A stretch of DNA of 64,000 nt from Alloprevotella sp. Lung230 (lineage in GTDB: Bacteria > Bacteroidota > Bacteroidia > Bacteroidales > Bacteroidaceae), in contig NZ_JACSUD010000001.1 of assembly GCF_014385435.1 (NCBI RefSeq), positions 372,001 to 436,000 on the forward strand. Direction: 5' to 3'. The notes under the pieces were generated by a model. That model was not told the DNA's origin, did no database searches, and saw nothing but the letters and a program-made list of their open reading frames with translations. Below are positions 36,112 to 57,176 of this stretch, in pieces. Position 1 is the stretch's first letter, and every line of letters begins with the position of its first letter. Made by a program: the position numbers and the translations under genes.

Positions 36112-36123
36112 ATACGCTCATAT

Positions 36124-36342: not shown

Positions 36343-36353
36343 AAGTAAGAATA

Positions 36354-37237: not shown

Positions 37238-37254
37238 TTAAAACATAAAAGACA

Positions 37255-37674: not shown

Positions 37675-37696
37675 CTCCTTAAACAACGAAAGGAAA

Positions 37697-38227: not shown

Positions 38228-38244
38228 AACAAGGAGGATAGATT

Positions 38245-39519: not shown

Positions 39520-39545
39520 GCAACAATCACCAAAACATCACAGAT

Positions 39546-39800
39546 ATGAAAGCAGAAATAGAAAGCATCGTATGCAACTGGGCGGACGAGATACCTAATA
39601 TCCTTGTAAGGGTAATCAATGCCATTACCCTATCCGCCAATGAAGAGGAACTGAGGGCTGCTGTCAAGAGGATAGCCGAAGAAACGGAACTTGACAAGTT
39701 CTTTGCCTATGGTTACGGCACACATCATTTTTGGCTTACCCACCGCAGGTTATCGAATGGTGAGCCAATGGAACACAGATTATTAAAGGTTGAGTTTTGA
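39546..39800 (+). CDS. hypothetical protein, ICE-encoded
   Basis: The 84-residue protein starts MKAEIESIVCNWADEIPNILVRVINAITLSANEEEL, a helical part, and ends in a basic, aromatic stretch. No family is recognised. It follows pcfJ by 26 bases. ATG 39546 is used because the longer frame overlaps pcfJ by 94 bases. Confidence 0.6.
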   Translation: MKAEIESIVCNWADEIPNILVRVINAITLSANEEELRAAVKRIAEETELDKFFAYGYGTHHFWLTHRRLSNGEPMEHRLLKVEF

Positions 39801-39804
39801 GAAT

Positions 39805-40035
39805 ATGAAGAAGAGAGTTTACAGAGTACGGACACAATACATTTTCGAGGGAGTGTTTGAGGTGGTTGCCGAGAGCAGGGAGGAAGCACGGCAAAAGGTC
39901 ATTCAAAATTGCGGATTGGTAATGGGTGGAAACATTCACAGCACCCTGCCCGATGAGGAGGTAAATTGGGCTTTCTCCACTCACCCCGAAGTCAGGACGG
40001 GATGGATAACTGTTCAAGAAAAACTGACGGAGTAA
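39805..40035 (+). CDS. small DpnD/PcfM-like protein
   Basis: The 76-residue protein YRVRTQYIFEGVFEVVAESREEARQKVIQNC has the F-x-V-x-A-x-S-x-E-E-A pattern of the DpnD/PcfM family. It is the last gene of the plus-strand block; a perfect terminator follows its stop. Confidence 0.65.
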   Translation: MKKRVYRVRTQYIFEGVFEVVAESREEARQKVIQNCGLVMGGNIHSTLPDEEVNWAFSTHPEVRTGWITVQEKLTE

Positions 40036-40066
40036 AGCGGTCGGCAGATTTGCCGACCGCTCCTTT
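40036..40066 (+). terminator. terminator of the PcfJ block
   Basis: Perfect 11-bp stem AGCGGTCGGCA (40036-40046) / TGCCGACCGCT (40051-40061), 4-base loop, then CCTTTC. Another inverted pair GTTACTTTTGA (40127-40137) / TCAAAAGTAAC (40155-40165) follows and may serve the convergent HerA gene. Confidence 0.85.
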
Positions 40067-40201
40067 CTTTCGTGAGCTTCGGGCGGACAAAGAAAGGAGC
40101 AAAGAAACCCTAATGAAAAACACCTCGTTACTTTTGACAGTGAGTTGAGACGGCTCAAAAGTAACAAAAAGCCATTTCTAAACGAGATTTATTTTTCGTT
40201 A

Positions 40202-42307
40202 TTAGTGTTTATTTTTTTCTCCTTTTTCCCATGCTTTTGCAATATCCTTGTATGCTGGAAAATCATCAGATGGATTTTGAATCCAATTCTCAATGAACTT
40301 TGGATTATTACTATTGGGTCTGGGATTAGCTGTATTCATTCGAACTTGTACAGGAGTTCTTACTGCATCTCCCATTATAATCGCATGTTGTTGTGGCAAT
40401 ATCGGCAATTGTTGTAAAATATCGTTATTAGCTGCTGAAACTAATTGTCGCACATAAGTCTGGTCATCAGGATTTTGTAAGCGATGTACGACAAAAGAAT
40501 TACATTGCGATAATACTGTTTTAGATAATTCTGATGGTCTTTGACTTGAAATCAATAATGAGACACCATATTTTCGTCCTTCACGAGCTATTCTTTCAAA
40601 AACTTTTTTAGAAATAGACTCCTTATCTCCTCTATTCCTTTCTGGGATGTAGTTTTGCGCCTCCTCTAAAGCTATAACTATGGGCATTTTCCCGCGTTCT
40701 TCTTCGGGAAAACGAGAAACAAACTCAAGTATGAGTCTCCCTACCAATCCTGTTATTGTTTCCAATACATCAAAAGGCAACAATGACATATCTATAATGG
40801 TGATTTGATTTGCCTTTTTGGTGTCATCCGCCTTTGTTTTGTCCTTGTAAAATAGCGTAAAAAAGTCATCATCTTCTTGTGAATACACTTTACAGAAATC
40901 TCCAAGTACAAAAGCTATAAATTTTGCAAGAGAGTTTTCTATTTCTGCAGTTTGATCCATCATTAAAGGTTGACACAACCTTTCGTCTCCAAGGTAAGAT
41001 TGTAAACGTAATCTTAGAGTGGATACAAACTCTCGTAGTTTATTCCCTGAATTTTCTTGTTCAATGATTGCTTCTTCAAAATAACGATTTATTAATTCCT
41101 CAAAGTTAAAATAAATCGGCAAATCAATATTACGTTCTTCAGCTGTTTCTTGTGAACGGATTGTTTGATTGTAAGTAGACAATTCTTTTTCTATGTTTTC
41201 GCTAAACTCCGATAAAACCTGTGAACTTACACAACCATTTAAATAGTTGCCATTTTTACTAAGTTTAGATTTCTCCTCTAATAATCTCTGCAATGATGAT
41301 ATGATGTTATTTTTATCAAAATCTGTTTCTAAAGAGCTGAACTCATTTATAAAATCCTCAAGCTCTGAATATATCGTGTTTTTTATCACGAAATTATTAG
41401 TTAAACACTCATTCCTAATAATCTCCAGTTTTGATAGATATGTTTGTGGAATATTTCTTTTTATTACAGCGACACTTTGATTCTTTGATAAGGATAGTGC
41501 CCTCTTGAAAATCGGTGTCTGCGTACCGGCAGTAGGAGTAAACAAATAATCAAAATCTGAAAAGTTCATAAACCAAAAAGGAACTTTCAATCCATCCTTA
41601 TCTATATGAAATGGATTTACCTCTTTTAATTTGGCATAAGGAACTTCTTTTGTCCCCATAAAAGCTTGTTTATATTCTCCATTTGTATCAAACACAACGA
41701 AATGAGCACTCTGTAGCAACTGTCCATTGTATTTAAAACTAAATAAACTTTGGATAATAGATGCAAATGTACAGGACTTTCCTGAACCAGTATTGCCTAA
41801 AATGGCTGAATGTTTCCCAAAGAATTTATCAGGATTAATTTTTATTTTATAGTCGGTGAAAGATGGTGAGGTCCCTATCGGGAGATAATAATCTTCAGAA
41901 AAATCTATATTATCCTTAGGTTGCTGATCGAAAATAGCATCTAAATCTTCTCGAACTACATACCAGACAGGATTATCAAGAATAGGATAATTATAAACTC
42001 CTTGAATATACCTTCCGTCATTTTCTATAGTTCCTATCATTGTGGCAATAAGAAAACGAGAAGATTTAGTCAAGAATATAGCTTCTTTATTTTTTCCTAA
42101 TTCTGTTTCATCTATAGCCCTTACGCTTGTTACCATAGCAACAATTCTATCTGCTCCAATAGGTATTATCACATAGGAATTAATACGAGCGACTTCGTAG
42201 ATGTCCTCATATCCACTTTTATATAAACTTTTTAGGTCATCATCTAATCTGATGAATACCCTAAAGCTATCTACGGAAATAACCTTTCCTATATTTCTGT
42301 CTGACAT
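40202..42307 (-). CDS. HerA-like hexameric ATPase, partner of SIR2 gene
   Basis: The 701-residue protein has an N-terminal HAS-barrel-like region (7-66, IGKVISVDSFRVFIRL ... VAMVTSVRAID) and a DUF87/HerA ATPase core. Walker A GNTGSGKS is at 171-178, Walker B is IVIALEEAQNYIP, and the HerA sensor/arginine region SQRPSELSKTVLSQCNSFVVHRLQNPDD follows. Codon use is AT-rich against its neighbours. Such ATPases pair with SIR2 NADases in SIR2-HerA phage defence. A matching SIR2 gene lies on the same strand upstream, but 10 kb away. A DNA-translocation role without defence cannot be excluded. Confidence 0.88.
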   Translation of the reverse strand: MSDRNIGKVISVDSFRVFIRLDDDLKSLYKSGYEDIYEVARINSYVIIPIGADRIVAMVTSVRAIDETELGKNKEAIFLTKSSRFLIATMIGTIENDGRYIQGVYNYPILDNPVWYVVREDLDAIFDQQPKDNIDFSEDYYLPIGTSPSFTDYKIKINPDKFFGKHSAILGNTGSGKSCTFASIIQSLFSFKYNGQLLQSAHFVVFDTNGEYKQAFMGTKEVPYAKLKEVNPFHIDKDGLKVPFWFMNFSDFDYLFTPTAGTQTPIFKRALSLSKNQSVAVIKRNIPQTYLSKLEIIRNECLTNNFVIKNTIYSELEDFINEFSSLETDFDKNNIISSLQRLLEEKSKLSKNGNYLNGCVSSQVLSEFSENIEKELSTYNQTIRSQETAEERNIDLPIYFNFEELINRYFEEAIIEQENSGNKLREFVSTLRLRLQSYLGDERLCQPLMMDQTAEIENSLAKFIAFVLGDFCKVYSQEDDDFFTLFYKDKTKADDTKKANQITIIDMSLLPFDVLETITGLVGRLILEFVSRFPEEERGKMPIVIALEEAQNYIPERNRGDKESISKKVFERIAREGRKYGVSLLISSQRPSELSKTVLSQCNSFVVHRLQNPDDQTYVRQLVSAANNDILQQLPILPQQHAIIMGDAVRTPVQVRMNTANPRPNSNNPKFIENWIQNPSDDFPAYKDIAKAWEKGEKNKH

Positions 42308-42641
42308 TTTTTTCAGATTTTCATTTTGTTGTTAATAAAGAATTCAAGGTCGTTGCTATATTTTCTGCGGAAGTATGGGAGTAGAAAGCAGAAAATGGCA
42401 TAAAACTCATATCTGACTGAAATACAGCGGATATTGCTTGTTTCTTCTTAGGGTTGCATCATAGGAAACAGGCAGAAAAGGGAGCGAAAAGGAGGGAGTT
42501 CAGTTACCAAATCGTTCGAAAAACGATGAAAGGAAAAGGACGGCTGAAAGTGGTAACTAAAACGGAGTTTTCTCTTTCATTATCAATGTTTTGCATCGTT
42601 CAAAGTTCCTCAAAGAAGTGTAATTTTGCAAGTAAAAAACA
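42308..42641. other. divergent region HerA / int1
   Basis: A 334-base stretch. Nested palindromes GTTACCA (42503-42509) / TGGTAAC (42551-42557) and ATCGTT (42511-42516) / AACGAT (42522-42527) lie upstream of int1 and could be recombinase or regulator sites. GTAATTTTGC (42620-42629) includes a -7 box for int1. Confidence 0.5.
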
Positions 42642-43895
42642 ATGGAAAAAGAAAAATTCAAGCTGCTTTTCTACCTCAAGAGAGGTACGCAGGACAAAAA
42701 CGGAAAAAGTCCCATCATGGGACGCATCAGCGCAGGACGCTCTATGGTACAGTTCAGTTGCAAATGCTCGTGTACTCCTCGTTTGTGGGACAGTCGCAAA
42801 AACCGACTGCTGGGCAAGAGTGCCGAAGCCGTATCGGTAAACAAGGAACTTGACCGCCTTCAGGTGAGCATACACAAGGTTTATGAGTCTCTTTCGGGTA
42901 AATCCGATGCTCCCATCACGGCAGAGCGAGTACGGGAGCTTGTATTCGGACTGAACAGTGAGTCACAAGGACTGCTGCATCATACAGACGAGTATATCGA
43001 CCGCTTCCGTGAGCGTGTGGGCATAGACCGCAGCGAACGCAGACTAAAATGCCTGTTGCTCTTTCACAAGCATCTGGCAAACTTCGTCAGGTATCGCTAC
43101 CGTGTGGAGGATATTCCCGTGCAGAAAGCCGACATCGCCTTTATCAAAGACTTGGAGGACTACTTCGCCAAAGAAAAGGGATTCAAGCTCAACACTTCGG
43201 CTGGCTATCTCTCCATGCTGGCTTCCTTGCTCAAAGACCTGCATAAACGGCACATCATTGACACCTATCCCTTCATCAACCATTCCATTCGTTGGGAAGT
43301 GGGTACTCCACGTTACATCACAAGGGAGGAGGTAGGTCTTATCGCAGCCTTGGGAGAAGATAAATTGCAAGGCTATGAAAAAGTGTCGAGGGATATGTTC
43401 CTTTTCTCCTGCCTGACGGGGCTTTCCTATACCGACGTGTATCACTTGACGGAGCAGCACGTCTTTCACGAAGCGGGAATGACTTGGATACGCAAGCCGA
43501 GAATAAAGACGGGCAACGTGTGCCACATCCCCCTACTTCCCGAAGCCACTGCCATTATCGAGCGTTATCGGGGCATTCACACGAGGGCTTTCCGACACGA
43601 ACCGCCCAAGGGGTATCTGCTGCCCATACCCGGATGCGACACGGTAAACATACACCTCAAAAAGATAGCACGGCTTTGCGGTATTCAGAAAACGCTGACC
43701 TATCACATGGCACGGCATACCTTCGCATCTCAGATGACACTGTCGGAGGGCGTGTCCATTGAGAGCGTTTCCAAAATGCTCGGACACAGTCAAATCAAAA
43801 CCACGCAAGTGTATGCGGAGACATCTCCCGAGCGTGTCTTTCTGGACATAGAGAAAATACTTCCACAACTCGCACATTATCAACTGACCAACTAA
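42642..43895 (+). CDS. tyrosine recombinase (integrase) 1
   Basis: The 417-residue protein has an N-terminal arm-binding region, a SAM-like core-binding domain (about 130-220) and a catalytic domain with LTYHMARHTFAS (HxxR) and LGHSQIKTTQVYAE (His and the nucleophile Tyr). The usual first Arg is replaced in CLTGLSYTDV, as in IntDOT-type enzymes. It should integrate, excise or invert DNA. int2 follows 12 bases downstream. Confidence 0.92.
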   Translation: MEKEKFKLLFYLKRGTQDKNGKSPIMGRISAGRSMVQFSCKCSCTPRLWDSRKNRLLGKSAEAVSVNKELDRLQVSIHKVYESLSGKSDAPITAERVRELVFGLNSESQGLLHHTDEYIDRFRERVGIDRSERRLKCLLLFHKHLANFVRYRYRVEDIPVQKADIAFIKDLEDYFAKEKGFKLNTSAGYLSMLASLLKDLHKRHIIDTYPFINHSIRWEVGTPRYITREEVGLIAALGEDKLQGYEKVSRDMFLFSCLTGLSYTDVYHLTEQHVFHEAGMTWIRKPRIKTGNVCHIPLLPEATAIIERYRGIHTRAFRHEPPKGYLLPIPGCDTVNIHLKKIARLCGIQKTLTYHMARHTFASQMTLSEGVSIESVSKMLGHSQIKTTQVYAETSPERVFLDIEKILPQLAHYQLTN

Positions 43896-43907
43896 AACCG
43901 CAGAACA

Positions 43908-45191
43908 ATGAAAAGTACATTTGCCATACTATTCTACATAGATAGAAGCAAGACCAATGAAGACGGACTATGCGTAATCCGTTGCCGTATCACCTGTAAT
44001 GGAACGTCCTCATCGTTTTCCACGCAGTTGCAAACTTCCCCCGACGAGTGGCTTGCCCGAAAAGGGTGCATCAAGGCGACAACAGGTAATTCAAGCGGCA
44101 TCAATCTGCAACTGAACTCAATAGAAGAGTGCTTGCATTCACTCTATGAACGTACATTAAGGGAAGAAAACTATATCACGGCGGAATACCTCAAGGAGCG
44201 TTATATGCAGCAAAGTCGCCCCATGCCAACACTTACGGAGCTATATCAATCCGTTTGTGAATACAAGGAGGAATTGCAGGGCAGAACATTAAGCAAGGCA
44301 ACTGTCAGGGCTTTTAAGGACAGCTACAAGAGTTTTGTTCATTTCCTGCAAGTAAGGGACAGGGCAGACTGTATGCCCACAGAGGTGGACAAGACTTTGC
44401 TTGAGGACTATCGCCTTTTTATGCTTCGGGACTTGGGAAACAAGGAAAGCAGTGTCGGCAACCGCCTACGCCACTTGCATCAGGTCATTCGCAAGGCATT
44501 GCAGGAGCGATACGTTCGTGAAGACCCTTTTGAACTCATAGACATAGAAACGCCTACCTACGAGCGCAATGCACTTACGGCGGACGACCTGCAAAAACTC
44601 TTGGCTTACCGTCCGCACCGCTCGACAGATAACCATTGCAGACTTATTTTCCTCTTGGGATGTTTCACGGGGCTGGCATTCTCAGACTTAAAGAAACTCC
44701 GAATGGACGATGTTTATACATTCGGGGATGGGCGTAGGTACATATCGCTCTGTCGAACAAAGACACAGAACAGAAGTATTGTCCCGTTGCTGCCCGTTGC
44801 CGAGAAAATACTCGCCATTGTGAGCCACGGACGAAGGGAGGGGCTTTTCTTTCGAGAGTTTCCCAGCAACAGTAATTTCAATAGAACTATTCAGGAGATA
44901 TGTATTAAGGCAGGACTGCCACCGCATACTCAAGCGACCTCGCACACCGCACGGCACACCTTTGCCACGACCATCTGTCTGGAGAACGGACTTCCGATAG
45001 AGACGGTGAGCAAGATGCTGGGGCATCGCTTCATCTCCACGACCGAGATTTATGCACGGGTGACCAAGAGCAAGATTGCCAAGGAAATGCAACCCCTGAT
45101 GGGTAGTGAGCATACAAGGGTACTGCGTAAAGCCTTACGGCTGTGTCCGTCAAGAACACCGAAAAAGTCAAGTCCCATAATTGGGATGTAA
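43908..45191 (+). CDS. tyrosine recombinase (integrase) 2
   Basis: The 427-residue second recombinase has an arm-binding part FYIDRSKTNEDGLCVIRCRITCNG, a SAM-like core domain, and catalytic TSHTARHTFATT, LGHRFISTTEIYAR. The Arg I site reads CFTGLAFSDL, again without Arg. Tandem tyrosine recombinases occur on several Bacteroidetes elements, where both may be needed. A Lys/Ser-rich tail extends past the nucleophile. Confidence 0.92.
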   Translation: MKSTFAILFYIDRSKTNEDGLCVIRCRITCNGTSSSFSTQLQTSPDEWLARKGCIKATTGNSSGINLQLNSIEECLHSLYERTLREENYITAEYLKERYMQQSRPMPTLTELYQSVCEYKEELQGRTLSKATVRAFKDSYKSFVHFLQVRDRADCMPTEVDKTLLEDYRLFMLRDLGNKESSVGNRLRHLHQVIRKALQERYVREDPFELIDIETPTYERNALTADDLQKLLAYRPHRSTDNHCRLIFLLGCFTGLAFSDLKKLRMDDVYTFGDGRRYISLCRTKTQNRSIVPLLPVAEKILAIVSHGRREGLFFREFPSNSNFNRTIQEICIKAGLPPHTQATSHTARHTFATTICLENGLPIETVSKMLGHRFISTTEIYARVTKSKIAKEMQPLMGSEHTRVLRKALRLCPSRTPKKSSPIIGM

Positions 45192-45246
45192 CAGCCGTAA
45201 TGAATGATTCAAAAAAAAGAAGTCCAACTTTTTAACAAGAAAAACA

Positions 45247-45732
45247 ATGAAACAGAAGAACAAAAAGGAACTTTCCTACTTCCGATTGAAGTTAAGAAGT
45301 TACATGAGTGAGCATCACCCCGAAAAGTTGCAAGATACGGAGTTTATCACTGCACGGGCAGATATGGCTCTCACAGTTTACTGCGATGCTGTAGCACAAG
45401 GCTTTACACACATTGAAGCGGAGAGCATGGCAAGCGAGGCATTGTATCAAGGCTTGCACTTTTCCAAGTACGATACGCTTATATCCGTGTTGGAAAACGA
45501 GTTTGAAAGGGAACTTCCTGCACCGCTCCCAGAGAAACTCGTACCTATACTGTTGTCGAACAAGGCTGTTCAAGCCACATTCGACAAGTTCGGTTTGACG
45601 GACACATTGGCTTCTGACGAGCAATACGGCCGTCTTTACACCGAACTGACAGGCACGATAGTGCTGCTCATCGAGAGCAACAATCTGCCAACGGTCAGAC
45701 TGACGGAGGAAGCAAGCCTGAAGGCGTTGTAG
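45247..45732 (+). CDS. DUF1896-family protein
   Basis: The 161-residue protein KKELSYFRLKLRSYMSEHHPEKLQDTEFI ... YCDAVAQGFTHIEAESMASEALYQGLHFSKYDTL fits DUF1896, common on Bacteroides conjugative elements beside recombinases. Function is unknown. No membrane segment is seen. It is 55 bases after int2. Confidence 0.85.
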   Translation: MKQKNKKELSYFRLKLRSYMSEHHPEKLQDTEFITARADMALTVYCDAVAQGFTHIEAESMASEALYQGLHFSKYDTLISVLENEFERELPAPLPEKLVPILLSNKAVQATFDKFGLTDTLASDEQYGRLYTELTGTIVLLIESNNLPTVRLTEEASLKAL

Positions 45733-46395
45733 GCAAAGGCGGCGCACGCAAAGTTCCTGATGCCGTTTCTTATCGTGCAAAGGTACAACGGCAGCCTGTC
45801 TGCCCTGACAAGGTCGAGTCCTGCGGATGGAGAGAAGAATCTCCACCGCAGGATTTCTCTGTTTCAAGGTGGTATTGCCATTTTCTATATCCATGCGGTC
45901 GTATTCATCTCTCCCAACCTTGCAGGGCTGGGCTGCCGTAGAGAGTATAGGCACGACAAGAATACGGCATACTCAGGCTCTTTGGACGCAAGGCGTAACA
46001 ACTAACAACAGATAGGACTGACGATAATACGGACAATCTATTGTTTGTACAATTTGTTGTCATGACTATCTGTTGTCAAAACTATATATCGTCAAAATAA
46101 TCTATCGATAAAACTATCTATCGACACTTCGACATCTCGATTTGTCGAACTATCGAATTATCGATAAAACAACAAGATAATAAAAGGAACGAGCCGGCAC
46201 CTCATCTCATTACCGCAATAACACAGACGGATTTCCTTTGTTTTTCTATTGCTTTCTCTCTATTTCCCTGCTTATCCTCATTTCTTGCAGTGGTGCTTCC
46301 GAGGGGTTACTTTTGCACCCGAGAAGTACGGCAATGGACTGCATAACAGTTTGTTTGCTGAGTAACAATAAAGTAATCAAAACAAAATTAAGGCA
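45733..46395. other. 663-base noncoding region before HTH genes
   Basis: A hairpin CCTGCGG (45820-45826) / CCGCAGG (45846-45852), then an AT-rich cluster of TCGATA, CTATC and TTGTC repeats (46010-46170). No convincing gene is seen. It lies upstream of the two Xis-like genes, so a regulatory or recombination-site role is plausible. Confidence 0.5.
46010..46170. repeat. short-repeat cluster upstream of Xis-like genes
   Basis: Repeated ACTATC (5 or more), ATCGATAAAAC (twice), TTGTTGTC/CTGTTGTC and the palindrome TATCGATA occur within 160 bases. Spacing is irregular. It looks like binding sites for a recombinase or directionality factor. Confidence 0.6.
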
Positions 46396-46665
46396 ATGAA
46401 ACTCATTATCATCGACCGCAAAGCGTGGGAGCGACATCGCTCCGAATTTGCAGACTTTATCCATCGTGTGGAAAAACTCATCGGTAATCCTCCCAAGACC
46501 GAGCAATGGCTCGACAACGAAGCCGTGTGCAAGCGTTTAGGCATCAGCAAGCGTACCCTACAATCATACCGAGATACGGGCAAAATCCCTTTCTCCATGA
46601 TTGGACATAAGTGTTATTACAAACAGACCGACATCTGTGAAATGCTGAATGCAGTCAAGGATTGA
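46396..46665 (+). CDS. helix-turn-helix protein, Xis-like (first)
   Basis: The 89-residue protein has a helical N-terminus, then LDNEAVCKRLGISKRTLQSYRDTGKIPFSMIGHKCYYKQTDICEML, a winged MerR-like HTH_17 domain of the excisionase type. Genes of this kind (for example xis2c/xis2d in CTnDOT) guide excision or regulate transfer. Which role applies here is not known. Confidence 0.8.
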   Translation: MKLIIIDRKAWERHRSEFADFIHRVEKLIGNPPKTEQWLDNEAVCKRLGISKRTLQSYRDTGKIPFSMIGHKCYYKQTDICEMLNAVKD

Positions 46666-46685
46666 AATCAAAGAATGAATGAATT

Positions 46686-47000
46686 ATGGCAGAGAATGAA
46701 ATCATTACGCGGGAAGACCCTCAGATGCAGTTGTTTTCACAACTGATGGAAGGCACTTTGAAGAAGTTGGAGCGGTATTGCTCTACCGCCCGTCCGATGC
46801 TGAATGGTGAGGTTTACCTTTCGGGTGAGGAGGTTTGCAGCCAATTACGGCTCAGCACACGCACGCTCCAAGAGTACAGAAACTCAGGAACGCTTCCTTT
46901 CTACAAAATCGGAGGGAAGATACTCTACAAGCAGAGCGACATACAAGCCATGCTTGAAAAACACTATAACCCGATACCCAAGAAATTATGGCAAGAATAG
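46686..47000 (+). CDS. helix-turn-helix protein, Xis-like (second)
   Basis: The 104-residue paralog of its neighbour has SGEEVCSQLRLSTRTLQEYRNSGTLPFYKIGGKILYKQSDIQAML. It is 20 bases downstream of the first copy and overlaps the next gene by 13 bases, so the three are one operon. Confidence 0.8.
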   Translation: MAENEIITREDPQMQLFSQLMEGTLKKLERYCSTARPMLNGEVYLSGEEVCSQLRLSTRTLQEYRNSGTLPFYKIGGKILYKQSDIQAMLEKHYNPIPKKLWQE

Positions 47001-47497
47001 ATGAAAAAAGGAAACAACGCTTGGAACAAGCCATTAGAGATATGGGAAATTATGGCGTTAAGCTCCGCAAGCCCGAAGAGTTACCCGATTTTGACCAGCC
47101 CTTCGATTATGAAGAGGAAAAGAGAAGGTTTGAGCCTGTTGATAAAGTTGAGGAACAAAATGACAAGGAGAGTAACAAGGATTTTTCTCAACCGTCCTAT
47201 CAAGAAACAGCGTTGTCGCCAACAGAAAGGGCTACTTCTACCGAAGAATTTCATCAAAGAATGGGAAAAACAAAGGACAGAAAGCAATTATCCGAGTTTC
47301 AGGGGAAATATCTCCAGCCCTTTCGCAACAGCCACCGCAAAGCCGTGTATGTATCAGAGGAAACCCAACGAAAGTTAGACTTCGTGGTGCGGAGAATCGG
47401 TGAGCATGGAGCGAGCGTTTCGGGATATGTCGAACAGGTACTGCGGGAACACCTCGACCAATACAAGGAAGATGTGGAAAGATGGAGGAAACTCTGA
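46988..47497 (+). CDS. DUF3408-family protein
   Basis: The 169-residue protein has a variable charged N-terminal half and a conserved C-terminal block, KAVYVSEETQRKLDFVVRRIGEHGASVSGYVEQVLREHLDQYKED, a ribbon-helix-helix-like pattern. DUF3408 proteins occur next to mobilization genes on Bacteroides elements and may be DNA-binding regulators or accessory mobilization factors. Confidence 0.85.
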   Translation: MARIDEKRKQRLEQAIRDMGNYGVKLRKPEELPDFDQPFDYEEEKRRFEPVDKVEEQNDKESNKDFSQPSYQETALSPTERATSTEEFHQRMGKTKDRKQLSEFQGKYLQPFRNSHRKAVYVSEETQRKLDFVVRRIGEHGASVSGYVEQVLREHLDQYKEDVERWRKL

Positions 47498-47689
47498 ATT
47501 ACTGCATTCCTCGAATGCAAGCCTACGCCGAGTTACTGTATTCAATGAATGCAGTAACACAGCAGGGGCTTATAATCCCATTTTCTACATCAGCAAGGTG
47601 TGTCTTTGTACCACAAATTGCCATTTGTACCACAAAGACCCTTGCCCCGAAAGGGGATTAAATCACTCCAAAGTCGTGATTAGAAAGCA
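47498..47689 (+). other. candidate oriT region upstream of mobA-like gene
   Basis: Bases 47503-47519 hold TGCATTC/GAATGCA. Bases 47532-47558 hold GTTACTGTATTC/GAATGCAGTAAC. TTTGTACCACAAA occurs twice at a 19-base interval (47605 and 47624), followed by CCCCGAAAGGGG (47645-47656). Such nested repeats upstream of a relaxosome gene suggest a transfer origin. No nick site was identified. Confidence 0.5.
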
Positions 47690-48109
47690 ATGAAGAAGCA
47701 AAAACAAAAGAAGCCAGACGGCAGATGTGCCACCTGCCCACGATGGGACAGATGGCACATCAGAATACCTAATTCCGAAGACCAGCAGAAACTTATCAGA
47801 CTCTATCGCAAGTCGGGAGCAAAGACAAAGAGCGACTTTGTCCGAGCAAGGCTTCTTGGTGAATCTTTTAAGGTCATCACCCAAGACCCTGCAAAAGAAC
47901 CTTACTTGGAGAAACTCTCAGAAATCGTTGCCTTGGCTCATAAGATAGGAGTTCTGTACAACGAAGTCGTGAAAGTCCTCAATACTTATCATTCTGTTGC
48001 CACTGCTCAACAACTGCTCGGCAAACTCGAAACCTATTCCCAAATTCTCATCAGACTACAACAGCAAGCAGTACAACTGACAAAATCCTTTGGGAGTAGA
48101 GAAGAATGA
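47690..48109 (+). CDS. MobA/MobC-like relaxosome accessory protein
   Basis: The 139-residue protein RIPNSEDQQKLIRLYRKSGAKTKSDFVRARLLGE resembles the ribbon-helix-helix start of Bacteroides MobA/BmgB-like proteins, followed by a long helical segment (LGKLETYSQILIRLQQQAVQLTKSF). They help the relaxase bind oriT. The relaxase gene that normally follows is absent. Only a 27-codon frame begins at 48110, where TGAATG joins the two. Confidence 0.8.
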   Translation: MKKQKQKKPDGRCATCPRWDRWHIRIPNSEDQQKLIRLYRKSGAKTKSDFVRARLLGESFKVITQDPAKEPYLEKLSEIVALAHKIGVLYNEVVKVLNTYHSVATAQQLLGKLETYSQILIRLQQQAVQLTKSFGSREE

Positions 48110-48327
48110 ATGCTGATAAATCATAACACCCATACTCGTATCGTACCGCGAATGTCCAATCCCTCTTTGGATGATACAAAAGGGTCACTTTGAACGATTA
48201 CATAGGACCAGTTTCAACGATTTTTCCACTCTGCCCTAATACTTTATCTTTTGGAAAGTACATTGATAATCAGATAATTATTTCAATAACTCCCGATTTG
48301 GAGTATTACCCCACATTTATTATTTTT
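48110..48327. other. segment between mobA-like gene and IS flank
   Basis: A short frame abuts the mobA-like stop and ends at the first TGA. Related stretches CCCGATTTGGAGTATTACC and CCCGATTTGGGGCATTACC (48283-48360) follow. I see no complete gene. Confidence 0.5.
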
Positions 48328-48585
48328 TTATTTTGACAATTCCCGATTTGGGGCATTACCATGACCATTAACAAACACAAAGTCTGTATAATCCCCTATA
48401 ACTAACGTATCTTTTGAAATTTTCCGTATTTTGTAATCAACATATGGATAGAGCTTTTCCACAGGATGTGGAAGTTTCCAATAAATAAAAACTCGCATGC
48501 CATCAACATCAAACACTTTAGGGAATAAAATGTCCTGTTGGGAAGTAAATTCTTCATCTCCTTTCTTATTATAAGCTGAATTCAA
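48328..48585 (-). pseudogene. ORF fragment abutting IS4351-like element
   Basis: The 85-codon frame reads YPYVDYKIRKISKDTLVIGDYTDFVFVNGHGN. It runs into the IS left end, where the start codon itself lies in the terminal repeat. It is probably the remaining 3' part of a gene whose 5' part is missing. No family is recognised. Confidence 0.4.
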
Positions 48586-49728
48586 CTTGCAAATGCAACA
48601 GAATTCTGATTAATAATTTGTTTAAATTTTTCGTTTGGCGTGAGGTATCCAAGTCTTTTACGAGGTCGATTATTGAGTTTATTTTCAATCCACTTAATCT
48701 GTTTGTTGGTTACTTCACTAAAGTCCTTACCCTTTGGGATATACTGCCTGATAAGCCCGTTGGTGTTTTCATTGGCACCACGTTCCCATGAGTGGTATGG
48801 TTTGCAAAAATAGAATTTTATTTCCAATTTTTGCGCAATTTCCTCGTGCTTTGCAAACTCCTTTCCATTGTCAGCCGTAATTGTGTGTATTAAGTTTTTC
48901 ACTTTCCGCAGTGCCCATACTGCAATCTTAGCTACCGGGATGGCTTCTTTTCCCGACAACTTGCGTATCCAGACCCTGCTTGTTGCTCTGTCGTTAATGG
49001 TAAGAATGGCACCTTTGTGGTTCTTACCAATAATTGTATCTATCTCTAAATCACCAAATCTCTCCTTCAGTTCCACTATCTCGGGACGCTCATCAATATC
49101 CACCCTGCCTGGGATAAATCCTCGCCCTGCATTTTTAGAACCACGTTTGGCATACCTGCGACCTTGTCTGCGAAGATATTTGTGCAGTTTGCCACCCCGC
49201 CGCTTATCCTCCCAAATCCAGCGATATATCGTTTCGTGAGATACCATCGCAATTCCCTCCAAGCGGCTCCTGCCGACAATCTGCTCCGGGCTGAATCCTT
49301 TCTTCAACAGCTTTATTATCCGTTTTCTCATTGCCGGTGTAAGCACTTCCTTGCGATGTTTTTGCTGCTTGCGCCTGTCTGCTTTTCGCTGGGCAAGCTC
49401 CATGCTATAGCTACCACTTCGGGCGTCGCAATTGCGCTTTATCTCCCTGTAAACAGTGCTTTTATCTACTCCGATAGCTTCCGCTATTGCTTTTTTGCTC
49501 ATCGGTATTTGCAACATCATAGAAAATTGCATACCTTTGTACCTCGGTTATATGTTTGCTCATCTGCAACTTTTTTTTCTTTGGACGGACAATTAAAGCA
49601 AAGATAGCAAACTTTATCCATTCAGAGTGAGAGAAAGGGGGACATTGTCTCTCTTTCCTCTCTGAAAAATAAATGTTTTTATTGCTTATTATCCGCACCC
49701 AAAAAGTTGCATTTATAAGTTGAACTCA
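48577..49728 (-). mobile_element. IS4351-like element (IS30 family)
   Basis: Terminal inverted repeats begin TGAATTCAACTTGCAAATGC (48577) and, read from the right end at 49728, TGAGTTCAACTTATAAATGC. They match at 20 of 23 bases. The 1152-base length is near the 1155 known for IS4351. No matching 3-base target duplication is visible, so the present junctions probably arose by recombination or decay. erm(F) starts 28 bases outside its right end. Confidence 0.85.
48582..49532 (-). CDS. IS30-family (IS4351-like) transposase, 5' frameshifted
   Basis: The readable frame has 316 codons. The HTH region is SKKAIAEAIGVDKSTVYREIKRN. The DDE triad is FGDLEIDTIIG, TADNGKEF and SWERGANENTNGLIRQYIP. The intact protein should begin at ATG 49563 (MSKHITEVQRYAI), and the span 49563-48582 is exactly 326 codons plus stop plus one base. 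The extra T is in the run ATTTTC near 49521-49526. Translation from the internal ATG at 49532 would lose 13 residues of the N-terminus, so activity is doubtful. Confidence 0.85.
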   Translation of the reverse strand: MQFSMMLQIPMSKKAIAEAIGVDKSTVYREIKRNCDARSGSYSMELAQRKADRRKQQKHRKEVLTPAMRKRIIKLLKKGFSPEQIVGRSRLEGIAMVSHETIYRWIWEDKRRGGKLHKYLRRQGRRYAKRGSKNAGRGFIPGRVDIDERPEIVELKERFGDLEIDTIIGKNHKGAILTINDRATSRVWIRKLSGKEAIPVAKIAVWALRKVKNLIHTITADNGKEFAKHEEIAQKLEIKFYFCKPYHSWERGANENTNGLIRQYIPKGKDFSEVTNKQIKWIENKLNNRPRKRLGYLTPNEKFKQIINQNSVAFAS

Positions 49729-49756
49729 AGAAGTATTCACCTGTAAGAAGTTACTA

Positions 49757-50557
49757 ATGACAAAAAAGAAATTGCCCGTTCGTTTTACGGGTCAGCACTT
49801 TACTATTGATAAAGTGCTAATAAAAGATGCAATAAGACAAGCAAATATAAGTAATCAGGATACGGTTTTAGATATTGGGGCAGGCAAGGGGTTTCTTACT
49901 GTTCATTTATTAAAAATCGCCAACAATGTTGTTGCTATTGAAAACGACACAGCTTTGGTTGAACATTTACGAAAATTATTTTCTGATGCCCGAAATGTTC
50001 AAGTTGTCGGTTGTGATTTTAGGAATTTTGCAGTTCCGAAATTTCCTTTCAAAGTGGTGTCAAATATTCCTTATGGCATTACTTCCGATATTTTCAAAAT
50101 CCTGATGTTTGAGAGTCTTGGAAATTTTCTGGGAGGTTCCATTGTCCTTCAATTAGAACCTACACAAAAGTTATTTTCGAGGAAGCTTTACAATCCATAT
50201 ACCGTTTTCTATCATACTTTTTTTGATTTGAAACTTGTCTATGAGGTAGGTCCTGAAAGTTTCTTGCCACCGCCAACTGTCAAATCAGCCCTGTTAAACA
50301 TTAAAAGAAAACACTTATTTTTTGATTTTAAGTTTAAAGCCAAATACTTAGCATTTATTTCCTGTCTGTTAGAGAAACCTGATTTATCTGTAAAAACAGC
50401 TTTAAAGTCGATTTTCAGGAAAAGTCAGGTCAGGTCAATTTCGGAAAAATTCGGTTTAAACCTTAATGCTCAAATTGTTTGTTTGTCTCCAAGTCAATGG
50501 TTAAACTGTTTTTTGGAAATGCTGGAAGTTGTCCCTGAAAAATTTCATCCTTCGTAG
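49757..50557 (+). CDS. erm(F): 23S rRNA adenine-N6 dimethyltransferase ErmF
   Basis: The 266-residue protein is the classic Bacteroides Erm. It dimethylates A2058 and gives macrolide-lincosamide-streptogramin B resistance. The SAM loop is VLDIGAGKGFLTVHLL (GAGKG at 41-45) and the target-adenine motif is NIPYG at 103-107. The strong AT bias fits its origin elsewhere. The start lies 28 bases beyond the IS4351-like end, which in known Bacteroides transposons supplies the promoter. Its last 13 bases overlap the opposing barrel gene. Confidence 0.96.
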   Translation: MTKKKLPVRFTGQHFTIDKVLIKDAIRQANISNQDTVLDIGAGKGFLTVHLLKIANNVVAIENDTALVEHLRKLFSDARNVQVVGCDFRNFAVPKFPFKVVSNIPYGITSDIFKILMFESLGNFLGGSIVLQLEPTQKLFSRKLYNPYTVFYHTFFDLKLVYEVGPESFLPPPTVKSALLNIKRKHLFFDFKFKAKYLAFISCLLEKPDLSVKTALKSIFRKSQVRSISEKFGLNLNAQIVCLSPSQWLNCFLEMLEVVPEKFHPS

Positions 50558-52059
50558 TTCAAAGTCGGGTGGTCTACATCAATGCCACTGTTTATCTTCC
50601 ATTGCTTACCCTTATAATCCATTCTCAGGGTGAGTTCCTGCCCACATATAGATAGTGTGTTCTCATAACTTAGGCTATCTATGTATGGTCTATTCGGTAT
50701 AGTATAGTCGTAAGTGTTGCTTGTGTTTCTATCCTCTTCGTGATGCAGTCCGTACCCTGTCTGCAATTTCAACTGTTTGCCAAAAGGATGGGTATATTGC
50801 AATGATATTCTGCTTTCGTTGCGCAGGGTGGGCAGTTGTTGGCAAAGATTGCGCAACAGTAGTGAATCTCCGCCCACAGCGTTGCGCAGGTGGTGGAATT
50901 TCGTCAGTGAAAGGCTGGTATTATTAGTTTCATTCGAGTTACCGCCAAGTGTCGCCTTCACGGTAAATGATGCCCCAGCCTTGCCAATCCGCCGTGTGAG
51001 GTCGGCAGATACATGGTAATTCTTTCCATTGCTTTTTGTGTTATTTCGCAGCGTTCCCGAGGTCAGCGTGTCCGCAGCCGTATTGCGCTCATATAGGTAT
51101 GTTGTGTTGTCAGTCAGGTTGTCTGACCGTCCGAAGTTTCCATTTGCACTTATATTCAGCAAAGTCTTTTTGTCTATGTTATACTGCAGATTTATGTTTG
51201 CGGCATTACTGTGATTCTTGCTCAAGGAAAGCAGCATTGATTCCCGATATTTTGTTCCCGATGAAAGATATTGCTCATCATAGTCATGATTCTCGCTTCC
51301 ATTGTGGAAGGCATTGAGTGAGAGGCTTGCATTGAGCGTAATTTTCTTACCAAATTTCTTCACGATATTGCCCGACAATATGTTTTGGAAATTGTTTCCC
51401 CCAATGTTCATATTACTAAGATTGTCAGAGCGCAAAGTCAGCGAGGTGTTTTCGCCATCGGCATTGAATAGATTGCCCTGTACCTCATCCCTGCGTCTGT
51501 CGCGATTGCCGTGTTCAGCCGTTAGTGTTCCTGTCAGGCTGCCATTGTAGGTAGATTTGGTCTTGATGTCCAGCACATAATTGTCGGCACCATCATCTAC
51601 TCCCGTCATTTTCTCCAATGCGCTGAGCATGTCATACAGTTTCAGTAGTTCCACTGCATCGGTTGGCATATTCTCCAACGCTGCGATAATGTCGTTGCCC
51701 ATAAAGGTCTCGCCATTGATGTTTACGCCGTTCAATGGCTTTCCTTTGAATGATAGTTGCCTGTTCGCCTTGTCGTATTCCATGCCCGGAATATTCCTGA
51801 TTAAGTCTTCCAAGTTAGCACCTTTCCTTACTCGAAGGCAATCAGTATTGATAAACGTGGTGTCTTTTCTTATGGAAAACAATTTCCGCTGTCCAATAAC
51901 TTGAACTTCATCGAGTTCTATCGTTTTATGTAATGAAGAAACATGTTTTCGAGTAGGGTATATAGTATCACCCACAACTAAATTCAAAATAGTAGCATTA
52001 GCAGTGGGAAACAGCAGAAGTAGAATGATGAAGATTAAAAGAATTCTTTTGATTATCAT
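50545..52059 (-). CDS. TonB-plug outer-membrane barrel protein, 3'-truncated
   Basis: Hydrophobic signal (MIIKRILLIFIILLLLFPTANA), then a plug-type region VQVIGQRKLFSIRKDTTFINTDCLRVRKGANLEDLIRNIPGMEYDK, as in TonB-dependent-receptor relatives, then many barrel strands. The protein stops after 504 residues at NYEG, where barrel proteins of this type run to about 800. The 3' end falls at the erm(F) junction, which suggests truncation by rearrangement. The TAATTTTG box is only 5 bases before the start. It is probably non-functional. Confidence 0.7.
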   Translation of the reverse strand: MIIKRILLIFIILLLLFPTANATILNLVVGDTIYPTRKHVSSLHKTIELDEVQVIGQRKLFSIRKDTTFINTDCLRVRKGANLEDLIRNIPGMEYDKANRQLSFKGKPLNGVNINGETFMGNDIIAALENMPTDAVELLKLYDMLSALEKMTGVDDGADNYVLDIKTKSTYNGSLTGTLTAEHGNRDRRRDEVQGNLFNADGENTSLTLRSDNLSNMNIGGNNFQNILSGNIVKKFGKKITLNASLSLNAFHNGSENHDYDEQYLSSGTKYRESMLLSLSKNHSNAANINLQYNIDKKTLLNISANGNFGRSDNLTDNTTYLYERNTAADTLTSGTLRNNTKSNGKNYHVSADLTRRIGKAGASFTVKATLGGNSNETNNTSLSLTKFHHLRNAVGGDSLLLRNLCQQLPTLRNESRISLQYTHPFGKQLKLQTGYGLHHEEDRNTSNTYDYTIPNRPYIDSLSYENTLSICGQELTLRMDYKGKQWKINSGIDVDHPTLNYEG

Positions 52060-52341
52060 TTTGCAAAATTACCATTGTTCATAGATATATGCAATACCTT
52101 AAAATGGCGATTTTATAGAATTAGAAATGTCTAAGGTTGATTTTCATTGAAAAAACAACGTAAATACTTTGCTTATATGAATTATATCGCTATCTTTGCA
52201 ACATCAAACAGAGAGTTCTTTGAGACTTTGCAGAATAAAGAAAGGGAAAGAAACTCGCTCGTTTCTTAGTCGTTCACCTTATCAGATTATATATTCTGCT
52301 TTTTATTAGTAATCAGTCGATTACATTCACCCCCATTACTT
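52060..52341. other. intergenic region barrel gene / SIR2 stop
   Basis: A 282-base gap holding an orphan plus-strand promoter (52168-52198) and AT-rich sequence. No gene is seen. It is the right junction of the segment that separates SIR2 from HerA. Confidence 0.5.
52168..52198 (+). promoter_or_regulatory. orphan promoter antisense to SIR2
   Basis: TTTG (52168-52171), 19-base spacer, TATCTTTG (52191-52198). Downstream there is no plus-strand gene, only the convergent SIR2 3' end. Confidence 0.5.
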
Positions 52342-53694
52342 TTATGCGGAACTTCCTTCGTTAAAATTGGGCATTAATGTATCTGCAAAAGTCAGAAAGT
52401 CACCAAAGAACTCGCCCTCAAGGATGATAATCCGTGGGTCATTTAAGTCCTTCAGTCGTTGTATTTCCAAATTCTTTGTCCCTGCAAAATCTACAATAAT
52501 GAGTGTAAAAGTAGGATTTGATAAAGCTTGATATATAATATCATTAAAATGCTCATCATAAAATGAGTATCCTACTGTGATGAGCACAGATTGAGGCTGT
52601 GTAATAGTTGTTGCAAATTGCCTAAACAATTCAGAGTAAGGCAAATCTAATGTGTAGGTTTTTTTTACAGCAGATGGGTAAATGATAATCTCGCCTTTCT
52701 TATCCAACTTATCAATAACATCTAATGTTTTTTCTTCAATGCCATATAGGTTGTTAGAATCTCTTTGTATAGAATTTATCCAAGAAAGAGAACCATGCAA
52801 TTTGATGTATCGAACTACCTTTTCAATTCTTTGTACTTTTCCAGAAGTTGTTGAACCTGGATAAAAAATATCATACTCAAAAGTCTCTGGCTTGAAAAAT
52901 CTTTTATGGAATCCTGTAAAACCATCAATATAATGAATCCCCAAATTATCAAAAGCATACTCAAAAGCCAAATCATAATTTGATGTAAAGATATTCGCTC
53001 TCCTCAAATTAAGAGGTCTTTGCAACAAAGATTTTAAGAATAATTGATGAAAATGATATTTGTTTTTTAGGGCACTCTTAAAAGCATTCTTTTTACCTCT
53101 TTTGATAATTCTCCGTAATTCAGAAATAGGAATTTTGCGCTTATCTACATTGCAAACCTCAAACAATCCTTCCTTGATAGTACTTATAAGCTCTCTTGTC
53201 TGTTTGGCTTCTTCTGCCATATTAGTCAAAGATTGAAGAAATTCTGTAGCCGTCAGATAATTGAGTACGCTTTCATACTCTGTTGCTATTTCTCCAGATA
53301 GACTATCTCTAATGATAGAGTCCTTTATTATAAACTCCCATCCTTTTTTGTCTTTAAAAGTTGAGCCTTCTTCCTTATCCTTCAGTTGCTCTTTCTGCAA
53401 CTTTTTTATCATCGAATAAAAAGCATCACCTCTCTCTCTTCCTAAAATATATTTTTCAACTTCAATAGGAAAGTTTCTAATAGAAACTGCCCCAAGATGA
53501 ATAGAAGTACCTGAGCCAAATAGAAAACTAACATTGTCCAATTCCATATAATTTTTCAATGTCATTTTTATTTTTTCTATGATTTTTGCTTGCGATATTT
53601 TGCCATCATTCCAGTCGTGTAATTTATCAACATTTCCAAAGAACAGCTTATTCTTCGTTATATCGAAAATCGCATTTTTTTCTTTTTCTTCCAT
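52342..53694 (-). CDS. SIR2-family NADase-like defence protein
   Basis: The 450-residue protein has the SIR2-like NAD-binding loop FLFGSGTSIHLGA (GSGTS at 60-64), the FTSNYDLAFEYAF motif (TSNYD at 237-241) and KLHGSLSW with the catalytic His300. A mid-protein helical insert separates them. Such proteins deplete NAD+ during infection, with HerA as regulator or partner. The start 53694 is chosen because the 53724 ATG is upstream of a TAACTTTG box at 53719-53712. Sequence is AT-rich. A HerA gene lies downstream at 42307, across a 10-kb segment. Confidence 0.88.
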   Translation of the reverse strand: MEEKEKNAIFDITKNKLFFGNVDKLHDWNDGKISQAKIIEKIKMTLKNYMELDNVSFLFGSGTSIHLGAVSIRNFPIEVEKYILGRERGDAFYSMIKKLQKEQLKDKEEGSTFKDKKGWEFIIKDSIIRDSLSGEIATEYESVLNYLTATEFLQSLTNMAEEAKQTRELISTIKEGLFEVCNVDKRKIPISELRRIIKRGKKNAFKSALKNKYHFHQLFLKSLLQRPLNLRRANIFTSNYDLAFEYAFDNLGIHYIDGFTGFHKRFFKPETFEYDIFYPGSTTSGKVQRIEKVVRYIKLHGSLSWINSIQRDSNNLYGIEEKTLDVIDKLDKKGEIIIYPSAVKKTYTLDLPYSELFRQFATTITQPQSVLITVGYSFYDEHFNDIIYQALSNPTFTLIIVDFAGTKNLEIQRLKDLNDPRIIILEGEFFGDFLTFADTLMPNFNEGSSA

Positions 53695-53711
53695 ATAGAA
53701 TCTGTTTTTTG

Positions 53712-53719
53712 CAAAGTTA
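53712..53719 (-). promoter_or_regulatory. -7 box of SIR2 gene
   Basis: Minus strand TAACTTTG, 17 bases before the chosen start. It also completes GTAACTTTGC, a sequence like the CTnDOT att core, probably by chance. Confidence 0.5.
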
Positions 53720-53805
53720 CTCATTCATAACGAGAAAAGTGAATAAAACGGCAAGAAAACGCCCCTTGTGAAGCACAAAAATGTCGCAAGGAGCGTATCT
53801 GATAA

Positions 53806-54315
53806 TCAGGGTATATAAAACAGGGTAAACTCTACATTTCGTCGTTTGACAAGTCCTCGCAGGACTTTGCCTTTGTATCGGCAAAAAGAGACAAATTCAC
53901 GGTAGAAATCCCTGTCGCCCGACTCTATCTTTCGTAGCAGTCGGCTCTTGGGATGCTTGCCATATCCCAGCAACCTACCCGCTCCAACATTGTAGGACAG
54001 AACGGCAAGCAACAAAGCATCCTTTCCGTAGTCCTTGAACATCATCAGACGCTTCATCAAGTCGGCACGCAATAGGGAGTCCGCCTGCCTTTCCGTCATC
54101 GCTGCCGTAAACTGTTCGCCCGGCAAGAGCTGATGCCCGTATCCGACATAGGGAGCATCTTTGAACCCGTGTAAGCCCTCAAAATGCTTAATGCAGACGA
54201 CGGCACGCTCAAAAGGTGGCAACGAAAGAAGTACATTTCTTCTTTCCTGAGCGGAAAGCCGTAAGCAGGAGAGGCAGACAAGACACAAGACGACAAGCTT
54301 ACTTCCTATCCTCAT
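53806..54315 (-). CDS. lysozyme-like glycoside hydrolase of transfer operon
   Basis: The 169-residue protein has signal MRIGSKLVVLCLVCLSCLRLSA, then IKHFEGLHGFKDAPYVGYGHQLLPGE, a GH24-like opening with the catalytic Glu, followed by a helical domain with LAVLSYNVGAGRLLGYG. It should open peptidoglycan for the conjugation channel. ATG 54315 overlaps the traQ end by 17 bases, and the longer frame inside traQ is not used. Confidence 0.88.
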   Translation of the reverse strand: MRIGSKLVVLCLVCLSCLRLSAQERRNVLLSLPPFERAVVCIKHFEGLHGFKDAPYVGYGHQLLPGEQFTAAMTERQADSLLRADLMKRLMMFKDYGKDALLLAVLSYNVGAGRLLGYGKHPKSRLLRKIESGDRDFYREFVSFCRYKGKVLRGLVKRRNVEFTLFYIP

Positions 54316-54760
54316 CCTTCTTCTCCTTTTCCTCGTCTTTCTGACTGTTGAACTCAAACGAGAGCTTTGCTGTCTGCCCGAAGTTGTCCTCCACATACAC
54401 ATCTATTGTCTGTTGGTCTGTGGATGCGGAAGTATAGTATAGCCTGAACTCTTCTTTCGTGAGCGGATAACGGTCGTTTGGCTTGAAGACCATGCCGTTA
54501 TCCATCTTCAATCTCCCCCTACCATCGGGTTGGAAATAACGGATGATATAGCGTGCATCTTCAAATCTCCCCTGCCGTTTGAGCGTGCAGCGTATTTCCG
54601 CCGTCTGCCCCTTGGCGATATGCTTCTGCACCGGCATTGTCTCTACCGTGAACGGGTACGCCTGCTGAATATCCAACTCGTGATCACAAGCAGATAGACA
54701 AAACACGGCAAAGGAGAGCACCCCCATTACCCAAATCGTATTCAATATTTTATTCTTCAT
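54299..54760 (-). CDS. traQ: conjugative transposon protein TraQ (DUF3872)
   Basis: The 153-residue lipoprotein has a signal ending in the lipobox LSAC (SFAVFCLSACDHELD), then an all-beta domain. The C-terminus is highly charged (NSQKDEEKEKKDEDRK). The family is DUF3872, named TraQ in CTnDOT; its exact role is unknown. It lies after traP. Confidence 0.88.
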   Translation of the reverse strand: MKNKILNTIWVMGVLSFAVFCLSACDHELDIQQAYPFTVETMPVQKHIAKGQTAEIRCTLKRQGRFEDARYIIRYFQPDGRGRLKMDNGMVFKPNDRYPLTKEEFRLYYTSASTDQQTIDVYVEDNFGQTAKLSFEFNSQKDEEKEKKDEDRK

Positions 54761-54787
54761 TTTTCGTTACATTTTAATATTATACTC

Positions 54788-56217: not shown

Positions 56218-56218
56218 A

Positions 56219-57139: not shown

Positions 57140-57176
57140 TTTACTTTGGATTAAAGTGGTGAATAATAAATGTGAA

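What the first reader, a model, noticed from the sequence alone, without database searches (positions are those of the whole stretch)
40202..53694. SIR2 and HerA defence genes split by a 10-kb erm(F)-bearing segment
Seen: a SIR2-family gene (GSGTS, TSNYD, LHGS) and a HerA-like ATPase gene (Walker A/B, HAS barrel) lie on the same strand in the order SIR2 then HerA, both AT-rich, but 10 kb apart. Known: SIR2-HerA pairs are adjacent in anti-phage systems. Between them are recombinases, Xis-like genes, a mobilization gene and erm(F). Inference: a mobile segment inserted between SIR2 and HerA, which may uncouple or rewire the system while joining phage defence and antibiotic resistance in one ICE.
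Basis: partly seen in the sequence, partly recalled or inferred. Interest (0 to 1): 0.82.

Follow-up and report, generated by a model that had tools for sequence, protein, structure and literature searches.

The report
Resistance element splits phage-defence gene pair
A 10-kb mobile element carrying an antibiotic-resistance gene has recombined into the end of the first gene of a two-gene anti-phage system on a larger mobile element, splitting the pair and trimming the first protein, while a relative still carries the unsplit pair.

Summary
SIR2 (52342-53724, minus; start probably 53694) and HerA (40202-42307, minus) lie 10 kb apart. Prevotella illustrans locus L002 holds the same flanks with the two genes 13 bp apart: a natural empty site, the only close one found. 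The segment, window 42366-52351, recurs whole at 99.6-99.97% identity at four places in three other genomes, with the same ends. It is an integrative element of the tandem-tyrosine-integrase (MTnPi) kind with erm(F), one IS4351-like transposase gene and a MobC gene; no relaxase was found. Its crossover site is TTCC-N5-RA. The crossover lies inside SIR2 and removes its last 14 residues, with a tail motif seen in all 18 relatives found. And the lysozyme-PcfJ interval is a cargo hotspot of the host ICE family. In all 18 relatives the two genes are adjacent or overlap. The most likely effect is a broken operon: trimmed SIR2, HerA cut off from its promoter, defence probably impaired. That effect is inferred, not shown. 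Small elements nested in ICEs are a known kind, so the case is instructive rather than surprising.

The parts
35270..64000 (.). host ICE (left part; continues beyond the window to about G000:C1:485,400, about 78 kb in all; ends approximate)
   Evidence: homology to L002 stops at 35272; TraM, TraJ, TraG domains; own integrase and right end beyond the window
38245..39519 (+). PcfJ-like gene, left flank of the cargo site
   Evidence: Pfam PcfJ 1.2e-46; present in L002 and in 12 of 13 fetched related ICE stretches
40202..42307 (-). HerA-family ATPase, open reading frame intact
   Evidence: 91% identical to the L002 protein
42321..42410 (-). 29-codon ORF: start supplied by the element, fused to the severed SIR2 tail, ends 13 bp before HerA
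   Evidence: expression not tested
42362..42372 (-). attL core, TTCC-GCAGA-AA on the SIR2 strand
   Evidence: empty site in L002 at 4508
42366..52351 (.). inserted integrative element with erm(F), about 9.99 kb (crossover within the att cores)
   Evidence: same ends and 99.6-99.97% identity at four other places
42642..43895 (+). tyrosine integrase 1
   Evidence: Pfam Phage_integrase 1.2e-16
43908..45191 (+). tyrosine integrase 2
   Evidence: Pfam Phage_integrase 7.1e-20
46396..47000 (+). two HTH_17 (excisionase-like) genes
46988..48109 (+). DUF3408 gene and MobC_2 gene
   Evidence: NCBIfam Bacteroid_MobA 2.7e-22, below its cut-off
48582..49532 (-). IS30-family transposase (IS4351-like)
   Evidence: NCBIfam IS30 8e-97; a plasmid record annotates the 99.7% identical match as IS4351 family (H3)
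49757..50557 (+). erm(F)
   Evidence: NCBIfam erm_F 612.8 bits, cut-off 575
50545..52059 (-). outer-membrane beta-barrel protein fragment
   Evidence: Pfam OMP_b-brl_3 1.9e-4, under its cut-off
52341..52351 (-). attR core, TTCC-GCATA-AA on the SIR2 strand; gives SIR2 a new stop codon
52342..53694 (-). SIR2-family gene, last 14 codons cut off by the insertion
53712..53719 (-). TAACTTTG, candidate -7 box of the SIR2 promoter
   Evidence: pattern match only
53806..54402 (-). lysozyme gene of the ICE, right flank of the cargo site
   Evidence: Pfam Phage_lysozyme 5.9e-11

Best explanation
A SIR2-HerA anti-phage operon sat as cargo between the lysozyme and PcfJ genes of a conjugative element. A 10-kb integrative element with two tandem tyrosine integrases and erm(F) then recombined into a TTCC-N5-RA site in the last codons of SIR2. 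Shown by sequence: the empty site in a relative, the ends, whole copies elsewhere, the loss of 14 SIR2 residues, and the separation of two genes that are adjacent in all 18 relatives found. Inferred: SIR2 is still made from its own promoter but lacks a conserved tail, HerA is cut off from SIR2 transcription and translational coupling, and the NAD-depleting defence is therefore weakened or lost while the ICE carries erm(F) along.
For: Natural empty site L002 with both flanks. Whole same-ended copies L068-L071 with 3, 3, 9 and 38 mismatches over about 10 kb; the two in G353 share no flank. TTCC-N5-RA at 11 of 12 left junctions and TTCC at 4 of 5 right junctions. SIR2 and HerA adjacent in 18 of 18 loci, gap -8 to +13 bp. 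Tail motif [ED]-x-[VI]-[AS]-x-[TI]-LN in 18 of 18, absent here. PADLOC profile match stops at 391 of 414 here against 407, 409 and 410 in the three relatives scanned. Before HerA: 1 Bacteroides-type box of 5/6 against 4.3 in shuffles and none of 6/6. In V. cholerae, deleting herA significantly raised plaquing by ICP1_2001_A, ICP1_2004_A and ICP3 (PMC11559045, section 8 read).
Against: No functional data. The SIR2 motifs TSNYD, LHGS and GSGTS and the HerA frame are intact. The role of the lost tail is unknown; the AlphaFold model was too poor to tell (mean pLDDT 47.7). A 29-codon ORF carrying the severed tail ends 13 bp before HerA and could help its translation. One sigma-70-like match lies on the HerA strand at its start, though matches in that kilobase are within chance (4 against 2.2, sd 1.5). 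HerA shows 6 window-derived changes at conserved columns against 1 L002-derived and 2 undecided, SIR2 1 against 1; with a recombined block in HerA this is weak either way. The empty site rests on one locus.
Confidence: 0.8

Rival explanations
1. The insertion is real but harmless: the SIR2 tail is dispensable, HerA is transcribed from within the element or by read-through, and the two proteins still assemble.
For: Both frames open and SIR2 motifs intact; the removed stretch is the chain end; one sigma-70-like match on the HerA strand at 42335-42306.
Against: The tail motif is kept in 18 of 18 relatives; promoter-like matches around HerA are within chance (4 against 2.2, sd 1.5, both strands; Bacteroides box); gene adjacency lost.
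Confidence: 0.25
2. SIR2 and HerA were acquired separately and never formed a pair here.
For: They are 10 kb apart in the window.
Against: L002 has them adjacent at the same ICE position with the same flanks; 18 of 18 relatives adjacent.
Confidence: 0.01
3. The segment arrived by IS4351 or compound-transposon (Tn4351-type) transposition rather than by integrase.
For: An IS4351-like transposase gene next to erm(F).
Against: The segment ends at 42366 and 52351, kilobases from the single transposase gene; the same ends recur at four other sites with a TTCC-N5-RA core beside the tandem integrases.
Confidence: 0.02
4. Assembly artefact joining an erm(F) element to the ICE.
For: Draft genome of 31 contigs.
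Against: Only one whole copy of the element in this genome, inside a 529,595-base contig, with a clean crossover in a 12-bp overlap.
Confidence: 0.03

Closest known systems
SIR2-HerA (Nezha) anti-phage system
   Same: SIR2_2 and DUF87 proteins, adjacent in all 18 relatives found; PADLOC SIR2 and HerA profiles match strongly; solved chains 8j4u, 8yhx and 8w9l (SIR2) and 8ziq, 8xau, 8wiv (HerA) match by sequence
   Different: Distant from NCBI's named families: below equivalog cut-offs (145 against 500 bits; 257 against 850 bits); pair split and SIR2 shortened here
MTnPi1-3 mobilizable transposons of Prevotella intermedia (PMC4755523, passages and section 13; PMC5704250, table passages)
   Same: Two tandem, dissimilar tyrosine integrases; 11-bp att of the form TTAC or TTGC, N5, two purines
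   Different: Core here is TTCC; no relaxase found in the element; carries erm(F)
IMEs that insert into ICE genes, and the ermF region of CTnDOT described as an IME derivative (PMC5704250, passages)
   Same: Small integrative element, with erm(F), riding in a conjugative element
   Different: Here it lies in a defence gene; 6 of the 11 other copies examined lie in a large helicase gene
CTnPg1-family ICEs (att TTTTCNNNNAAAA, PMC4755523 section 13)
   Same: Both ends of the host ICE, read by eye, fit TTTTTNNNNAAAA
   Different: Fifth base T instead of C; membership otherwise not tested

Membership tests
SIR2-HerA (Nezha) | SIR2-like protein with the conserved Asn and His | tested here: met
   SIR2_2; N239 and H300 invariant in the 14 aligned sequences; that these are the catalytic residues is by homology only
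SIR2-HerA (Nezha) | HerA-type ATPase partner | tested here: met
   DUF87, PADLOC HerA, solved HerA chains matched
SIR2-HerA (Nezha) | genes adjacent | tested here: not met
   10 kb apart in the window; met in L002 and the 17 other loci
SIR2-HerA (Nezha) | NCBIfam equivalog score cut-offs | tested here: not met
   145 of 500 and 257 of 850 bits
SIR2-HerA (Nezha) | NAD depletion on phage infection | not testable with these tools
   needs experiment
MTnPi-type mobilizable transposon | tandem tyrosine integrases | tested here: met
MTnPi-type mobilizable transposon | 11-bp att, TTxC-N5 and two purines | tested here: met
   TTCC-N5-RA at 11 of 12 left junctions (L071 has TTCA) and TTCC at 4 of 5 right junctions (L068 has CTCC)
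MTnPi-type mobilizable transposon | relaxase gene | tested here: not met
   relaxase pieces of the second nested element gave no hit in the window, nor in L068-L078; no ORF of 80 aa or more after MobC on its strand before erm(F) other than frames antisense to the transposase gene
MTnPi-type mobilizable transposon | excision as a circle | not testable with these tools
   shown for MTnPi1-3 in PMC4755523; not tested for this element
CTnPg1-family ICE | att TTTTCNNNNAAAA | tested here: inconclusive
   TTTTT instead of TTTTC at both ends as read

The most novel reading that the evidence does not exclude
The erm(F) element is a reversible plug in a defence operon. Since most MTnPi1-3 copies tested were found to excise (PMC4755523), cells may alternate between a split, quiet SIR2-HerA system with a trimmed NADase and an unplugged one, tying the costly defence of the ICE to the movement of a resistance element. 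The severed SIR2 tail, on its own small ORF just before HerA, would be part of the same rewiring.
Probability: 0.06. Interest if true: 0.75.

Novelty: new member of a known kind. Interest (0 to 1): 0.42.

Why it matters
It is a clean natural case in which an antibiotic-resistance element interrupts an anti-phage operon on a conjugative element, with an empty site, a crossover core and several same-ended copies at hand. It shows that defence genes annotated as present on ICEs can be split or trimmed by passengers. It also points to a conserved SIR2 tail as a testable part of the SIR2-HerA complex.

Tried and rejected
Separate acquisition of the two genes was rejected by L002. IS4351-driven transposition was rejected because the ends recur and do not lie at the transposase gene. 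The phage collection gave no match to window 40000-54500 at the near setting. Viral contigs gave 1 distant relative of SIR2 from 127 candidate stretches. HerA DNA matched 12 of 399 family genomes, own included; the rest are distant, the best two (G027, G032) at 65-70% over parts, with SIR2 beside HerA there too. SIR2 protein matched 3 of 58 genus genomes, own included, the other two at 32% and 27%. SIR2 DNA was sought in ten genomes that hold related elements or ICE flanks: 0 of 10 (no positive control in that call). The AlphaFold model of L002 SIR2 was too poor to place the tail (mean pLDDT 47.7), so no fold search and no second prediction were run. dN and dS to L002 (SIR2 0.020 and 0.164, HerA 0.052 and 0.335) mostly reflect time before the insertion and were not used as evidence of present function. 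Paper searches: searches listed papers, none of whose listed titles or abstract starts describes this insertion; two searches found none. These cover the held library only.
Full report
What is in the sequence. SIR2 lies at 52342-53724 and HerA at 40202-42307, both on the minus strand. Pfam gives SIR2_2 and DUF87. PADLOC gives SIR2 PDLC04084 (1e-94) and HerA PDLC04102 (9e-183). Both genes are AT-rich. Between them are two tyrosine integrases, two HTH_17 genes, DUF3408, MobC_2, an IS30-family transposase, erm(F) and an outer-membrane-barrel fragment. The finding's description is right. The SIR2 start is probably the ATG at 53694, because a TAACTTTG box lies just after the upstream ATG (inference).

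The empty site. A scan of genome contigs with SIR2 gave 18 loci. The closest, L002 from Prevotella illustrans A2931, matches window 35272-42372 at 88.8% and window 52340-56802 at 87.8%; the two matches meet in a 12-bp overlap in L002 (4508-4519). There SIR2 (474 aa as called) and HerA (705 aa) are 13 bp apart, between the same lysozyme and PcfJ genes. L002 is the only locus found with both flanks and no insert. In all 18 loci the two genes are adjacent, with gaps from -8 to +13 bp. Two of the 18 are themselves damaged: L017 SIR2 lies in two frames and L019 HerA is broken.

The insert is a discrete element. The segment 42366-52351 recurs whole at four places in three other genomes of the same family: L068 (G092), L069 and L070 (both G353) and L071 (G337). 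Mismatches are 3, 3, 9 and 38 over about 10 kb; L068 carries 368 bp more between erm(F) and the barrel fragment. The two G353 copies share no flanking sequence. Seven further loci, L072-L078, match from the same left end but not to the right end. With the first 5.8 kb as query, 96 of 399 family genomes, own included, have some match, many of them short. The window's own genome has one whole copy, which speaks against misassembly.

The crossover site. Read on the SIR2 strand, the left junctions have the form ATACTTCC-N5-RA in 11 of 12 copies (L071 has TTCA) and the right junctions TTCC-N5-AAAGTAATGG in 4 of 5 (L068 has CTCC). L002 shows the unoccupied site TTCC-GCAGA-AAA. This resembles the 11-bp att of MTnPi1-3 from P. 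intermedia (TTAC or TTGC, N5, AA or two purines; table passages of PMC5704250). Those elements also have two tandem integrases, and most of the copies tested were shown to excise (PMC4755523, passages and section 13). I found no relaxase in the element here. The second nested element in the same ICE has a Pfam Relaxase domain, its frame split in two; its pieces also gave no hit in L068-L078, so what follows MobC in the relatives is not settled. I call the insert an MTnPi-like element without its own relaxase that probably travels inside conjugative elements; the last part is inference.

Where else it goes. Of 11 other copies examined at the left end (L068-L078), 6 (L068, L071, L073-L076) lie at the same place in a large helicase gene. 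The homologue in the window's own genome has Eco57I and SNF2 domains and lies inside the ICE. In G092, G345, G136 and G056 the element lies about 35-58 kb from an ICE lysozyme-region match on the same contig, so the preferred target is probably an ICE gene. L070 lies in a permease-like frame (named by eye). In the other four (L069, L072, L077, L078) the longest frame reaching the left junction was 38 codons.

The host. The ICE starts near window 35270 and ends near G000:C1:485,400, about 78 kb. It has TraM, TraJ and TraG domains and its own integrase. Both ends, read by eye, fit TTTTTNNNNAAAA, one base from the CTnPg1-family site TTTTCNNNNAAAA (PMC4755523 section 13). I fetched 13 related stretches from among the 108 of 399 genomes, own included, that matched the lysozyme region. 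Of these, 12 have both lysozyme and PcfJ with 1.5-9.9 kb between; L118 has no PcfJ match, and none of the 13 has a SIR2 or HerA match. Of 8 cargo proteins scanned with PADLOC, 6 match at least one defence model, among them AbiH, bSEFIR and PDC-S31; the methyltransferase (mad2) and LmuA matches are weak grounds. So SIR2-HerA sits in a hotspot of exchangeable cargo.

What the insertion does. It replaces the last 14 SIR2 residues by an immediate stop. The lost stretch holds the motif [ED]-x-[VI]-[AS]-x-[TI]-LN, seen in all 18 relatives. In the alignment of 13 of them with the window, E451, L457 and N458 (L002 numbering) are listed as nearly invariant. The PADLOC profile match ends at 391 of 414 in the window but at 407, 409 and 410 in L002, L003 and L016. 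The SIR2 motifs are kept. HerA keeps its frame but loses the SIR2 promoter and its neighbour. No Bacteroides-type box of 6/6 lies upstream of it, and there is 1 of 5/6 where shuffles give 4.3. A 29-codon ORF, begun by the element and ending with the severed tail, stops 13 bp before HerA; whether it is used is unknown. In V. cholerae, SIR2 active-site changes abolished immunity and deletion of herA significantly raised plaquing by three phage isolates (PMC11559045, section 8 read). The likeliest outcome is an impaired system. This is inference: no function was tested and the structure prediction was too poor to use.

Verdict. The case is a well-supported nested insertion of a known kind of element into a known kind of defence system, with the twist that the crossover trims a conserved SIR2 tail.

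Noticed in passing
G000:C1 about 464,000-477,900 (window-extended about 92.0-105.9 kb): A second tandem-integrase element with a relaxase (frame split) sits in the helicase gene of the same ICE; its Xis-Mob block is 84% identical to that of the erm(F) element.
   Followed up: partly
L114-L117, L119-L126: The lysozyme-PcfJ interval of this ICE family is a cargo hotspot with defence-like genes (AbiH, TIR/SEFIR, AAA_21, PDC-S31), an NYN gene, methyltransferases and transposase-like ORFs (transposases named by eye).
   Followed up: partly
window 42321-42410, minus: The severed SIR2 tail stays open as a 29-codon ORF with a start supplied by the element.
   Followed up: partly
L068 8043-8410: This copy has 368 bp between erm(F) and the barrel fragment that the window, L069, L070 and L071 lack.
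   Followed up: no
L070 left and right ends: N5 sequences at its junctions (TTATA and CAATT) differ from the usual GCATA, as if carried over from an earlier site.
   Followed up: no
window HerA, codons about 300-400: About 65% nucleotide identity to L002 HerA in this block against 89-98% in the other full blocks; looks like local recombination.
   Followed up: no
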